NCBI RefSeq assembly: GCF_016735495.2
Contig: NZ_JAERQY020000001.1
Span: 186,001-250,000, forward strand
Source: Lysobacter sp. MMG2
Lineage (GTDB): Bacteria; Pseudomonadota; Gammaproteobacteria; Xanthomonadales; Xanthomonadaceae
Direction of reading: 5' to 3'
DNA length: 64,000 bases
Under the pieces are notes generated by a model. That model saw only the letters and a program-made list of their open reading frames with translations, searched no databases and had not been told where the DNA came from. Position 1 is the stretch's first letter. Every line of letters begins with the position of its first letter. The position numbers and the translations under genes are program-made. Below, piece by piece: positions 6,729-32,916 of the stretch.

Positions 6729-6836
6729 GCCATCCATGGCGCAACGCAATCGGCTTCGGAACGCCCGGCCCGGCCATCCATGGCCGGGCGTTCGGCAGGC
6801 CGCGCGGCAGTGCCGCGCAAGCGGCCTGCCTCACCC
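6729..6836 (-). repeat. Two-hairpin stop-codon repeat, copy A (after nadK)
   Basis: Read on the minus strand the element starts GGGTGAGGCAGGCCGC at 6836, forms hairpin 1 (GGCAGGCCGC...GCGGCCTGCC), then hairpin 2 (CGCCCGGCCATGG...CCGGGCG), and ends near CGCCATGGATGGCA at 6729. It is highly similar to the elements at 30959-31068 and 32808-32916. Its bases 6836-6831 (GGG TGA) are the last glycine codon and the stop of nadK. No T-run follows either hairpin, so it is not a classical intrinsic terminator, though it may still halt or protect transcripts. Confidence 0.85.
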
Positions 6837-7604
6837 AGCGATGAACTGCTCCGCCAGCATCCGCTCTTCCAGGTTGTGCTCCGGATCGAACAGCAACGTG
6901 ACCGTGCGGTCGTGCGATTCGCGGATGGTCACTTCGACCACGTCGCGCACTTCGTGCGAGTCGGCGGTGGCGCTGACCGGGCGCTTGTATGGATCGAGCA
7001 CGCGGAAGCGCACTTCGGTGTCGGCCTTGAGCACGGCGCCGCGCCAGCGACGCGGGCGGAATGCGGCGATCGGCGTCAGCGCGACCACGTTCGCGCCCAG
7101 CGGCAGGATCGGCCCGTGCGCGGAGAAGTTGTAGGCGGTGCTGCCGGCCGGCGTGGCCAGCAGCACGCCGTCGCAGATCAGCTCGTCCAGACGCGTCTCG
7201 CCGTTGAGGTCGATGCGCAGGTGCGCGGCCTGGCGGGTCTGTCGCAGCAGCGAGACTTCGTTGTAGGCCAGTGAGCCGACGGTGGCACCGGACTCGGTCT
7301 GCGCGACCATCTCCAGCGGGCGCAGCACGGCCGGTTCGGCCGCATGCAGGCGCGCGTGCAGGCCCTCGCCGTCGTGATGGTTCATCAGGAAACCGACGGT
7401 GCCCAGCTTCATGCCGTACACCGGTTTGCCCAGGCCGCCGTAACGGTGCAGCGTGGCGAGCATGAAGCCGTCGCCGCCCAGCGGTACAAGGATGTCGGCG
7501 TCTTCGGGTGCGTGCTGGCCATGGCGCGCGGTGAGCGAATGCAATGCGCGCTGCGCCTCTTCGGCGTTGCTGGCGAGGAAAGCGATGCGGGGCGTCGATG
7601 TCAT
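6831..7604 (-). CDS. nadK: NAD kinase
   Basis: Phosphorylates NAD to NADP with ATP or polyphosphate; cytoplasmic and normally essential. The 257-residue protein has the GGDG motif at residues 43-46 ([10 protein letters not shown]), the AYNEVSLLR block with the NE motif, and the C-terminal substrate loop [20 protein letters not shown]. It is at the short end of the family range (about 250-300). The ATG at 7604 is the only start. The last codon and stop are contributed by a repeat element (see 6729-6836). Upstream is a 138-bp inverted-repeat element, so nadK probably has its own promoter between 7605 and 7676. Confidence 0.95.
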
Positions 7605-7675
7605 CGGCGGCTCCAGGGTGACGGGGGGAGCATAACCGACGAGGCATGACGTTCGGATTGCCTTGGGACGCAGGC

Positions 7676-7813
7676 GGCCCGTCCATCCTTCGACTTCGGC
7701 CCTACGCTCAGCACGAACGGGGGCGGTCGCGTTGGCTCAGGCGGCAGCGATCGAGCATCACCGTCCGTCCTGAGCGTAGGCGCGCAGCGCCGAAGTCGAA
7801 GGATGGACGGGCC
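7676..7813. repeat. 138-bp MITE-like element with 25-bp perfect terminal inverted repeats
   Basis: GGCCCGTCCATCCTTCGACT continues to 7700 and is matched perfectly by the reverse complement at 7789-7813; a second pair of arms, CCTACGCTCAG (7701-7711) and CTGAGCGTAGG (7770-7780), extends the stem inward. The whole could fold as one long hairpin with a loop of about 58 nt. It contains no open frame of note and lies between nadK and the glutamate dehydrogenase terminator. Non-autonomous mobile element or a large REP-type hairpin are both possible. Confidence 0.8.
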
Positions 7814-7834
7814 GGCGCCGCGCGTTCAATCCAC

Positions 7835-7869
7835 GCAAAAGAAAAAGCCCGGCACCAGGCCGGGCTTCT
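7835..7869 (-). terminator. Intrinsic terminator of the NAD-glutamate dehydrogenase gene
   Basis: On the minus strand, AAGCCCGGC-CTGGT-GCCGGGCTT (7867-7845) is followed by a T-rich run (TTTTTCTTTTGC), 22 bp after the gdhB stop codon. A nine-pair stem with a U-tract is a textbook Rho-independent terminator. Confidence 0.9.
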
Positions 7870-7890
7870 TCATTCCACTGCGACGACGGT

Positions 7891-30964: not shown

Positions 30965-31068
30965 GGCACGCCGCGCGGCACTGCCGCGCGGCGTGCCGAA
31001 CGCCCGGCCACGGATGGTCGGGCCGGGCGATCCGAAGCCCACAACCTGACGCCACGTACGGCAGCCAC
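30959..31068 (+). repeat. Two-hairpin stop-codon repeat, copy B (after ABC permease)
   Basis: Begins GGGTGAGGCACGCCGCGCGG, with hairpin 1 GGCACGCCGC...GCGGCGTGCC and hairpin 2 CGCCCGGCCACGG...CCGGGCG, and ends near CGCCACGTACGGCAGCC. Hairpin 1 differs from copies A and C by paired substitutions that keep the stem. GGG-TGA (30959-30964) is the end of the permease gene. It separates the transporter genes from the solenoid and lipoprotein genes, so it may dampen readthrough. The remaining gap to 31289 (about 220 bp) shows nothing I recognise. Confidence 0.85.
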
Positions 31069-31289
31069 AGTTTTTCCGAAGCGGCGCTTTTGAAGATGAA
31101 AGCGACCGCAAGCCCCCAGATGGCAGGCCACCCGAGCCTCCACCAAGCACCACAAGCCGCATCCGTCTTCGCCCAAGCAACGCCTTGAAGTCGCAGAACC
31201 GAGCCCGCTTCCGCTCGACGCCACGGCCGACGCAACCAACGCCGCCGCGCTTGCATCCAAGTAGGGCCTTTCACGGAGAGACCATCGCA

Positions 31290-32060
31290 ATGCGCACCCT
31301 GTCCCTGTTCGCCCTGCCCCTCGTCCTGTTCGCCGGCCAGGCCTTCGCCGACGAATGCAAGCATTCGCAGCCGCACAACCTGCAGCTCGATTTCAACGGC
31401 GTGAAGACCATCATGTTCGACATCGGCCCGCACGACCTCGTCGTCAACGCCCAGCGCGGCGCCAAGGGCGGCGTACAGGGCAAGGCCTGCGCGTCCAATC
31501 CCGACCGTCTGAAGGAGCTTTCGCTCACCCAACAGCGCGTCGGCGACAAGATCATCGTCAAGGCCGAGCGCGCCGACACCATCAGCATCAGCTTCGGCAG
31601 CGCGAACTACGCCTACCTCTCCCTCAACGCGACCGTGCCGGACAACGTGCTGGTGCAGCTGAAGGTCGGCTCGGGCGACGCACGCGTCGTCGGCGCCTCG
31701 GCGCTGAGCGCCGACGTCGGCTCCGGTGATGTCGAAGCGCGCGACATCCGCGGCCAGGTCACCGCCGACGTCAACTCCGGCGACATCGAACTGGACACGA
31801 TCGGCTCCCTGCACATCCTGTCCGTCGGTTCCGGCGACCTGAAGGCGCGTCGCGTCAAGGGCGACGTCGTCATCGGCAGCATCGGTTCGGGCGACGTGGA
31901 AGTGCGTGATGTCAGCGGCAGCGTCACGGCCGACAAGATCGGCTCCGGCGACCTCGATGCGCATGCCGTCACCGGCAACCTGACCGTGCGCCGCGTCGGC
32001 AGCGGCTCGGTCGATCACAGCGGCGTGTCCGGCCGCGTCGACGTGCCCGTCGACGGCTGA
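31290..32060 (+). CDS. Exported beta-solenoid repeat protein (DUF4097/DUF2807-like)
   Basis: A 256-residue secreted protein. The signal peptide MRTLSLFALPLVLFAGQAFA is cut before DE. The mature N-terminus holds two cysteines (Cys 23, and Cys near residue 66). From residue 125 onward seven repeats of about 18 residues follow, each with a VGSGD-type turn (VGSGDARVVGA, VGSGDVEARDI, VNSGDIELDTI, VGSGDLKARRV, IGSGDVEVRDV, IGSGDLDAHAV, VGSGSVDHSGV), the pattern of a right-handed beta-solenoid as in DUF4097 / putative adhesin proteins. GGAGAG at 31275-31280 precedes the ATG. It is probably part of the ytrA operon by readthrough. Function unknown. Confidence 0.8.
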   Translation: MRTLSLFALPLVLFAGQAFADECKHSQPHNLQLDFNGVKTIMFDIGPHDLVVNAQRGAKGGVQGKACASNPDRLKELSLTQQRVGDKIIVKAERADTISISFGSANYAYLSLNATVPDNVLVQLKVGSGDARVVGASALSADVGSGDVEARDIRGQVTADVNSGDIELDTIGSLHILSVGSGDLKARRVKGDVVIGSIGSGDVEVRDVSGSVTADKIGSGDLDAHAVTGNLTVRRVGSGSVDHSGVSGRVDVPVDG

Positions 32061-32097
32061 CCGACCGCCTTTACTTCCCTTCCAAGGAATCCGCGCC

Positions 32098-32772
32098 ATG
32101 AACCTGCGTCCCCTCGCCCTCTCCGCGGTGCTTTCCAGCTTTTGCCTGCTCGCGGCCTGCGGGGCGAATCCCTCCGGCCAGCAGCAGGCGCAGCAGAAGG
32201 CCGAACAGACCGGCGGAGTGATCTCCGGCGCGGTGCAGAAGGCCTTGACCGAAGCGAAGAAGGAAATCGCCGAAGGCAACATCAACATCGACAACGGCAA
32301 GACCGGCAAGCGCGTCGAACTGTCGCCCAAGGGCGATTTCATCGTCGACGGCAAGCCGGTGCCGGTGACGCCCGAGCAGCGCGCGCTGCTGCTGGAGTAC
32401 CGCAGCCACGTGGTCGCGGTCGCCACGGCCGGCATGAACATCGGCATGCACAGTGCCGACCTCGCCACGCACGCGGTGACCGAATCGATCAAGAGCGTCT
32501 TCACCGGCGGCTCGGACGACATCGACGAGAAGGTGAAGGCGCAGGCGTCGAAGGTGGAAGCGGCGGCGCTGCAGTTGTGCAACGCGCTGCCGGGAATGAT
32601 GACTTCGCAGGACCGCCTCGCGGCCGCGCTGCCGGACTTCAAGCCCTACGCGAACCTGACGCAGTCGGACATCGACGAATGCGTCGACGAGGCGAAGGAG
32701 AAGAGCCACAAGTTGACGGCGGATGCCGCGGCCGAAGCGGCGAAGGCGTCCGAGGCGCCGTCGAAGCAGTAG
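32098..32772 (+). CDS. DUF2884 (YggN-like) lipoprotein
   Basis: A 224-residue exported lipoprotein with lipobox LLAAC (Cys 21). The mature protein opens with a Gln-rich segment and carries the DUF2884/YggN pattern: a GKTGKRVELSPKGDFIVDGK stretch, VTPEQRALLLEYRSHVVAV, a helical middle, and the two cysteines LCNALPGM and DIDECVDEA that probably pair. The C-terminus is Ala/Lys/Glu-rich and likely disordered. It lies 37 bp after the solenoid gene and ends 36 bp before repeat copy C. The biochemical role of the family is unknown. Confidence 0.82.
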   Translation: MNLRPLALSAVLSSFCLLAACGANPSGQQQAQQKAEQTGGVISGAVQKALTEAKKEIAEGNINIDNGKTGKRVELSPKGDFIVDGKPVPVTPEQRALLLEYRSHVVAVATAGMNIGMHSADLATHAVTESIKSVFTGGSDDIDEKVKAQASKVEAAALQLCNALPGMMTSQDRLAAALPDFKPYANLTQSDIDECVDEAKEKSHKLTADAAAEAAKASEAPSKQ

Positions 32773-32807
32773 GTCGGCAAAGCGGCCACGGCATTCGAAC
32801 ACATCGC

Positions 32808-32916
32808 TGCCGTCCATGGCGGGCCTGGATCGGCCCCGGATCGCCCGGCCCGGCCATCCATGGCCGGGCGTTCGGCAGGCCACGCGGCAGTGCCGCGTAG
32901 GCGGCCTGCCTCACCC
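32808..32916 (-). repeat. Two-hairpin stop-codon repeat, copy C (after fumC)
   Basis: On the minus strand it begins GGGTGAGGCAGGCCGCCTAC at 32916 and continues through hairpin 1 (ending GTGGCCTGCC) and hairpin 2 (CGCCCGGCCATGG...CCGGGCG) to CGCCATGGACGGCAGC at 32808. GGG-TGA (32916-32911) ends fumC. It is also the only sequence between fumC and the convergent DUF2884 gene. Confidence 0.85.

What the first reader, a model, noticed from the sequence alone, without database searches (positions are those of the whole stretch)
6729..32916. A two-hairpin repeat that supplies the last codon and stop codon of three unrelated genes
Copies at 6836-6729 (minus), 30959-31068 (plus) and 32916-32808 (minus) share about 108 bp: GGGTGAGGCAsGCCGC, hairpin 1, GAACGCCCGGCCAyGGATGG, hairpin 2, and a CGCCAyGkAyGGCA end. 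In every copy the GGG-TGA at the left end is in frame and is the terminal Gly codon plus stop of the gene it follows: nadK, an ABC permease, fumC. Three out of three in the same frame is very unlikely for ordinary intergenic repeats. Stem differences are compensated between copies. Idea: a portable 3' end (stop plus RNA structure) that spreads by inserting at or near stop codons, with its own TGA replacing the original one.
Basis: partly seen in the sequence, partly recalled or inferred. Interest (0 to 1): 0.85.

Follow-up and report, generated by a model that had tools for sequence, protein, structure and literature searches.

The report
Palindromic repeat parked behind stop codons
A repeated, folding DNA element found in many gamma-proteobacteria sits directly behind the stop codons of genes that mostly already end in glycine, and it carries two loops of the shape bound by the regulator RsmA/CsrA, so it may be a mobile control module for messenger RNA ends.

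Summary
The three copies exist, and GGG-TGA is the in-frame end of nadK, an ABC-2-like permease and fumC. It is not a coincidence of three: 18 of 24 loci read in this genome and 52 of 60 in eight sister species sit on an in-frame stop.

The reading needs correcting. The glycine is mostly native: 12 of 15 genes end in Gly at the same residue in two congeners that almost lack the element. GGG-TGA ends without the element exist. So the element lies just 3' of an existing GGR-TGA. It does not usually bring the last codon, though in three genes the end differs by one residue.

It is about 109 bp: head GGGTGAG, a covarying palindrome that differs between copies, then two hairpins with C-ANGGAN-G hexaloops, the published RsmA/CsrA site. 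It matches 114 of 149 family genomes, and its core occurs in Pseudomonas, Nevskia and Solimonas.

Best reading: a REP-like element inserted 3' of GGGTGA(G), kept at gene ends, and read as an RNA 3' UTR with two RsmA sites. No RAYT accompanies it in this genus. The mobilising enzyme and RsmA binding are inferred, not shown.

The parts
6729..6836 (-). Element copy 1, directly behind nadK; head GGGTGAG at 6836-6830, stop codon TGA at 6833-6831
   Evidence: NAD kinase by NCBIfam NF003406
6794..6830 (-). Hairpin 1 of copy 1 (variable palindrome with 5' bulge)
   Evidence: fold; covariation
6776..6781 (-). Hairpin 2 loop AUGGAU (C-ANGGAN-G hexaloop in the consensus; the single-sequence fold of this copy draws the loop differently)
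   Evidence: loop definition PMC7652899
6732..6737 (-). Hairpin 3 loop AUGGAU (stem seen in the consensus, not formed in the single-sequence fold of this copy)
30959..31063 (+). Element copy 2, directly behind an ABC-2-like permease gene; stop TGA at 30962-30964
   Evidence: weak Pfam PF13346, below its cut-off
31010..31015 (+). Hairpin 2 loop ACGGAU of copy 2; hairpin 3 of this copy is degenerate (ACGUAC, GGA lost)
32808..32916 (-). Element copy 3, directly behind fumC; stop TGA at 32913-32911
   Evidence: Pfam PF00206 and PF10415
32856..32861 (-). Hairpin 2 loop AUGGAU of copy 3
32812..32817 (-). Hairpin 3 loop AUGGAC of copy 3
6834..7604 (-). nadK (NAD kinase); ends in Gly without the element in three congeners (G001, G005, G010)
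32914..34329 (-). fumC; its poly-Gly tail ends GGG-TGA without the element in three congeners (G004, G008, G011)

Best explanation
The repeat is a REP-like, non-coding palindromic element of about 109 bp. Its left edge is not its own stop codon but a target motif, GG(G/A)TGA(G), left of the insertion point. It most likely enters genomes by site-specific insertion just 3' of that motif. Insertions survive where the motif is the stop codon of a gene that already ends in glycine, or lies close to a gene end. Once there it becomes the first ~105 nt of the 3' UTR. The RNA folds into a bulged hairpin abutting the stop codon, followed by two hairpins that can present C-ANGGAN-G hexaloops. These are probably bound by RsmA/CsrA, which would tune stability or read-through of the upstream message, or titrate RsmA where units form arrays.
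Shown here: position, frame, native glycine in most genes, element lying between stop and terminator in pilQ, covariation, loop conservation, wide distribution. Inferred: mobility by a transposase-like enzyme, transcription, RsmA binding, effect on expression.
For: In-frame stop at 18 of 24 own loci, 52 of 60 in eight sister species, 18 of 25 best hits in other genera and 55 of 111 in named genomes searched without the head. Native Gly at 12 of 15 genes in G001 and G010. nadK carries the element only in species whose protein ends in Gly. GGG-TGA ends without element: fumC (G004, G008, G011), s12 (G005-G008), s13 (G001, G010), s15a (G003, G004). pilQ: the terminator hairpin begins ~25 nt after the stop in G008 (no element) but a comparable one stands behind the element in G011, G000, G006, G007 and G002. 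Loops over 146 distinct copies: A 100%, G 97, G 97, A 99 with N 65% T in hairpin 2; A 98, G 97, G 95, A 97 with N 68% T in hairpin 3. The loop A stays although the base opposite is T in only 55% (hairpin 3). ANGGAN found in 120 of 125 named-genome units while the stem varies GCC-GGC 100, GAC-GTC 5, ACC-GGT 4, GGC-GCC 2. A-GGA unpaired probability 0.68 and 0.60 against 0.33 for all positions (143 copies). CsrA gene in 12 of 12 congeners. Covariation 0.258 against 0.086 in shuffles.
Against: No enzyme found: Y1_Tnp has no match in 11 of 12 congeners, and the one sub-cut-off gene is flanked by a different, GTAG-type repeat. In the window 2 roughly called gene ends with GGRTGA (6246, 24085) and about 7 apparently intergenic GGRTGA sites are unoccupied, so neither occupancy of stops is complete nor does target choice alone explain the bias (a gene caller that missed two of the three genes). 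No base-level empty site from a close relative was aligned. Folding is not clean: the fold of copy 1 pairs part of the hairpin-2 GGA and does not form hairpin 3; GGA is fully open in the best fold in 86 of 143 (hairpin 2) and 67 of 143 (hairpin 3) copies. Loop conservation could reflect DNA recognition: in hairpin 1, two-sided swaps (309 cells) far outnumber one-sided changes (39) (my sum). Very stable stems may disfavour CsrA (passage in PMC7652899). In RsmU, GGA changes did not abolish RsmA binding or function. Head-frame share falls to 55 of 111 outside the genus.
Confidence: 0.5

Rival explanations
1. A vertically inherited cis-regulatory RNA, not a mobile element: the same genes have carried it since the family ancestor, hairpin 1 drifts by arm-copying, and losses leave GGC-stop behind.
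For: xerD-, pstB-, moaA-, thiS- and ppc-like genes (judged by C-terminal peptides) carry it in several genera with unrelated hairpin-1 arms. G001 and G010 could be losses.
Against: Among the congeners compared, fumC carries it only in G000 and the QueD-like gene only in G000 and G008. Arrays, and copies in odd frames or without a gene upstream elsewhere, look like insertion.
Confidence: 0.2
2. An ordinary REP spread by a RAYT transposase, with GGTGA in the role of the GTAG tag.
For: Fixed head plus palindrome, arrays, tendency to sit at gene ends. REP termini 'often provide' the TAG stop of flanking ORFs (PMC3733652, section 15). Y1_Tnp genes occur in 101 of 149 family genomes.
Against: No Y1_Tnp match in 11 of 12 congeners; the twelfth gene is flanked by another repeat. 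Element-rich genomes without a match include G000, G004, G005, G008, G031, G046 and G049. Three hairpins and a hairpin-1 sequence that differs copy by copy, unlike the REP families tabulated in PMC2817692 (passages).
Confidence: 0.12
3. One reading: the element carries its own Gly codon and stop and replaces the old end.
For: GGR-TGA in 79 of 81 copies with the element, even where element-free relatives use TAG (xerD, nadK). One-residue differences in pilQ, a QueD-like and a GGDEF-like gene.
Against: Gly native in 12 of 15 genes; five family profiles end on it; GGG-TGA without element in several species.
Confidence: 0.1
4. A translational damper independent of RsmA: the hairpin abutting the stop slows or stalls terminating ribosomes, as reported for E. 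coli REPs within 15 nt of a stop. This is a rival for function only and can go with any origin.
For: Hairpin 1 starts within a few bases of the stop. The E. coli effect is told in passages of PMC12306157.
Against: Does not account for the conserved ANGGAN loops in hairpins 2 and 3.
Confidence: 0.08
5. A transcription terminator that evolved independently behind many genes.
For: Strong hairpins next to the stop, sense orientation.
Against: No U tract in the aligned copies; it sits between pstB and the next gene (phoU by recall), and pilQ has its own terminator behind it. Shared sequence outside the stems speaks against independent origin.
Confidence: 0.05

Closest known systems
GTAG-tagged REP elements / BIMEs (incl. 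SMAG of Stenotrophomonas), RAYT-associated
   Same: Short fixed tag next to a palindrome, tandem arrays, 3' side of genes, tag can be the stop codon of the ORF (PMC3733652, section 15 and passages read; PMC2817692, passages read).
   Different: Tag is GGGTGAG, stop is TGA and in this genus nearly always in frame; three hairpins; palindrome differs copy by copy; no RAYT of its own found in the genus.
RsmU, RsmA-sequestering sRNA from the comEA 3' UTR of Xanthomonas campestris
   Same: A 3'-UTR RNA with GGA motifs that binds RsmA, in the same bacterial family (PMC7694677, abstract and passages read).
   Different: Single locus, starts 25 bp behind the stop; sequence not compared here; there the GGA mutant still bound RsmA and kept its function.
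CsrB/RsmY/RsmZ-type multi-GGA sponge RNAs
   Same: Repeated GGA loops (PMC7652899, passages read).
   Different: Dedicated RNAs (their own promoters: recalled); here loops are spread behind many genes, with arrays at some.
RU-1/ERIC-like small mobile repeats of enterobacteria
   Same: Small repeats fused to gene 3' ends that change the stop (PMC2759123, passages read).
   Different: Sequences not compared; there the repeat extends ORFs, whereas this one mostly follows the native end.

Membership tests
REP (GTAG-type) | Short fixed tag adjacent to an imperfect palindrome | tested here: met
   Head GGGTGAG plus hairpin 1 in A1 and in most named-genome copies printed
REP (GTAG-type) | Tag is GTAG or a close variant such as GTGG | tested here: not met
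   Head is GGGTGAG
REP (GTAG-type) | Cognate RAYT (Y1_Tnp) in the genome, flanked by the same repeat | tested here: not met
   Genus only: 11 of 12 genomes have no match; the twelfth, below cut-off, is flanked by GTAG repeats. RAYT neighbourhoods in other genera were not inspected
REP (GTAG-type) | High copy number (usually over 100 per genome, PMC2817692 abstract start) | tested here: not met
   41 matches in own genome, 1-63 in the other 11 genus genomes (150 candidates scored per genome)
CsrA/RsmA binding site | ANGGAN hexaloop on a stem | tested here: met
   Sequence and stem conservation; definition in PMC7652899 and PMC3791407. Predicted openness is only partial
CsrA/RsmA binding site | Protein binds the RNA | not testable with these tools
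   needs EMSA or CLIP
Intrinsic terminator | G+C hairpin followed by U tract | tested here: not met
   By eye, no T run after a hairpin in the 17 aligned copies
Rfam-described RNA | Match to a curated family | tested here: not met
   cmscan of 4 element-bearing loci: nothing at gathering score; three sub-threshold matches (best E 0.075), none on the element
MITE | Terminal inverted repeats and target duplication | tested here: inconclusive
   No terminal inverted repeat seen by eye in A1; target duplication not analysed

The most novel reading that the evidence does not exclude
A stop-codon-seeking mobile element that installs a matched pair of RsmA/CsrA-binding hairpins in the 3' UTR of whichever Gly-ending gene it enters: a portable post-transcriptional regulon that spreads through gamma-proteobacteria, with arrays acting as built-in RsmA sponges, moved by an enzyme other than a RAYT.
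Probability: 0.22. Interest if true: 0.87.

Novelty: new variant of a known kind. Interest (0 to 1): 0.62.

Why it matters
Repeats beside genes are usually treated as litter. This one mostly occupies a single codon-level address, GGR-TGA, within a genus and often beyond it, keeps it through turnover of its own stem, and carries two copies of a defined regulator site. If RsmA binds it, it would be a case of a repeat wiring unrelated genes into a global regulatory network, and the target motif gives a direct handle on how REP-like elements choose gene ends.

Tried and rejected
Portable codon-plus-stop: rejected for most genes by element-poor congeners and by GGG-TGA ends without element. RAYT-driven REP: searched in genus and family; not met in the genus. 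Terminator: rejected by the pilQ and pstB contexts. Rfam: nothing at gathering score in four loci. Integron attC: considered from memory only, no core-site match seen by eye, not tested. The pattern GGGTGAGGCAGGCCGC with 3 mismatches was uninformative as a whole (204 matches against 159 with the reversed control). My quick gene calls in the window missed fumC and the permease, so the occupancy count of GGRTGA sites is only rough. A first frame script mixed antisense shadows with coding frames and was replaced. A claim that five of the eight misses end in a duplicated head upstream did not hold on re-testing and was dropped. Literature: motif strings (20 of 30 papers listed), REP with Lysobacter, REP with CsrA and searches showed in their listings no paper that I recognised as describing this element; the library lacks most subscription journals.
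Full report
Observation. Searches show the three copies. Copy 2 is shorter by four bases in hairpin 1 and its hairpin 3 is degenerate. In each copy TGA of the head GGGTGAG ends the long GC3-rich frame; the genes are nadK, a weakly matched ABC-2-type permease and fumC.

Genome-wide. Searches with a hairpin-2 20-mer, the whole element and the head led to 24 distinct loci that I read, several of them arrays with 107-119 bp period; in the arrays printed, only the gene-side unit keeps the head. 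Weaker matches (E above 1e-3), one 23-nt match and two 3-mismatch places were not read. The TGA is the in-frame stop at 18 of 24: s01-s08, s10-s14, s15, s16-s18 and the hairpin-1-only copy s24. Not so, or unclear: s09, s19, s20, s21, s22, s25. To avoid bias from the head, the 15 sites behind the loci returned give 11 of 15.

Sister species. A covariance model from 17 copies finds the element in 12 of 12 genus genomes, but only 3 and 1 matches in G001 and G010. I fetched 60 of the best sites in eight species, leaving out own and same-species hits. A script in frame; I drop one (L150, a repeated head with an unclear frame), leaving 52 of 60. The 8 misses, re-tested except L159: L148 ends in GGG-TGA 6 nt upstream; L171 in GGA-TGA 6 nt upstream by a weak coding call; L142 in GGG-TAA 28 nt upstream; in L139 the gene ends 49 nt upstream without a head; L150, L160 and L190 stay unclear; L159 has the MoaD-like end PPVSGG in frame but falls just below the coding threshold.

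Is the glycine brought in? Of 18 genes put into the query, orthologues of 15 were found in G001 and G010. In 12 the protein ends in Gly at the same residue, with codon GGC, GGT or GGG and stop TGA or TAG. Exceptions: PilQ (ends in Arg there, one Gly longer here), a QueD-like and a GGDEF-like protein (one residue shorter here; these two names are recalled, not searched). Family profiles of PstB, MoaD (just below its cut-off), MoaA, ThiS and PEP carboxylase (a fragment was scanned) end exactly on this Gly. Over 163 copies of 18 genes in 11 genomes, the end is GGG-TGA 72, GGA-TGA 7, GGT-TGA 1 and GCG-TGA 1 with the element (81); without it (82), 64 end in Gly but only 22 in GGR-TGA. Some of those 22 hold element remnants by eye (for example s02 in G002, s08 in G003, s18 in G004); others show none, such as fumC in G004, G008 and G011, s12 in G005-G008, s13 in G001 and G010, s15a in G003 and G004. 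The 18 genes were chosen because G000 carries the element there, so the Gly share is conditional on that. Whether the GGC ends of element-free copies are ancestral or follow a loss was not resolved.

Insertion. pilQ in G008, with no element, has a terminator hairpin beginning about 25 nt after the stop; in G011, G000, G006, G007 and G002 a comparable terminator stands behind one or more element units. In G000, G006 and G007 the element lies between pstB and the next gene (phoU by recall), which follows pstB closely in G001 and G010 without it. In the window, rough gene calls leave two gene-end GGRTGA sites (6246, 24085) and about seven apparently intergenic ones unoccupied.

Wider distribution. 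The model matches 114 of 149 family genomes, 46 of 54 genera (25 candidates scored per genome). Of 25 loci read in other genera, the best-scoring ones, 18 have the head as in-frame stop. Of 111 outer units with flank, 55 have the head as the gene's stop (52 GGG-TGA, 2 GGG-TAA, 1 GGC-TGA), 17 genes stop elsewhere (10 of them inside the hairpin-1 part in another frame, for example L381, L447, L478; 7 before the element), 8 read through and 31 have no coding call upstream; a few of the 31 (L383, L437) look like heads that the script missed. A further 13 units were inside arrays and 7 had no flank. So the strict frame rule belongs to this genus and weakens outside it, which fits insertion 3' of GGGTGAG in any frame followed by selection.

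Structure. Over 146 distinct copies 95.9% of pair cells are standard; 349 cells changed on both sides against 79.4 in shuffles; covariation score 0.258 against 0.086, and slid versions reach at most 0.037 (the alignment was fitted to the model). An independent check on 94 hairpin-1 bodies from named genomes gives 6.10 of 7 arm pairs against 3.58 with arms shuffled between copies. In hairpin 1 two-sided swaps (309 cells) outnumber one-sided changes (39) (my sum), so arm-copying at DNA level is likely. Hairpins 2 and 3 present C-ANGGAN-G: the A and GGA are 95-100% conserved and both N vary. In some Pseudomonas copies the hairpin-3 stem differs but the loop stays. This is the hexaloop described for RsmE and RsmN (PMC7652899 and PMC3791407, passages). 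The genus has a CsrA gene in 12 of 12 genomes. Folding alone is less clear-cut: the fold of copy 1 (z -2.95) pairs part of the hairpin-2 GGA and does not form hairpin 3; over 143 copies the A-GGA bases are unpaired with probability 0.68 and 0.60 against 0.33 for all positions, and GGA is fully open in the best fold in 86 and 67 of 143.

Known relatives. The GTAG REP paper states that REP termini often provide the TAG stop of flanking ORFs (PMC3733652, section 15), so a tag doubling as a stop codon is not new in kind. E. coli REPs within 15 nt of a stop are said to lower translation (PMC12306157, passages), a function this element could share. New here are the tag, the near-complete frame rule in one genus, the native-glycine address, the two RsmA-type loops, and the lack of a RAYT of its own in the genus. 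RsmU of Xanthomonas shows that a 3' UTR can sequester RsmA in this family, though GGA changes there did not abolish binding or function (PMC7694677, passages).

Verdict. Function as an RsmA-bound 3' UTR is the best-supported guess, untested.

Noticed in passing
L085:3178-3221; L099 near 1744-1766; L139, L142, L150, L160 near the element start: The first 22 nt of the element (head plus left arm) are tandemly duplicated in several copies; in L085 and L099 the gene ends in the outer copy.
   Followed up: partly
L089:3214-3263: Hairpin 1 alone lies between two convergent genes and contains the stop codons of both (GGGTGAGGC on one strand, GGGCGTAGGC on the other).
   Followed up: partly
L222 (G003): The only Y1_Tnp match found in the genus (below cut-off) is flanked by repeats of the type GTAGCCCGGGTAAGCGAAGCGCACCCGGGG, a different repeat also seen behind nadK in G010 (L198) and ppc in G010 (L200).
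   Followed up: partly
window 6293-6532: 66-bp tandem repeat of the GTCATTCCGGCGAAGGCTGGGATCCAGGC type just downstream of element copy 1; single relatives near 6541 and 45318.
   Followed up: no
window 62353-63825: Five or more diverged direct repeats of about 106 and 53 nt, possibly a repetitive coding region.
   Followed up: no
L381, L399, L410, L416, L418, L447, L459, L460, L478, L481: In other genera genes enter the element in a different frame and stop inside its hairpin-1 part, in some at a TAG in the bulge, giving altered C-termini.
   Followed up: partly
G009:C1:475726-476097: Two further CsrA-like matches within one 213-codon open frame, among the 12 genomes only in the same-species genome.
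   Followed up: no
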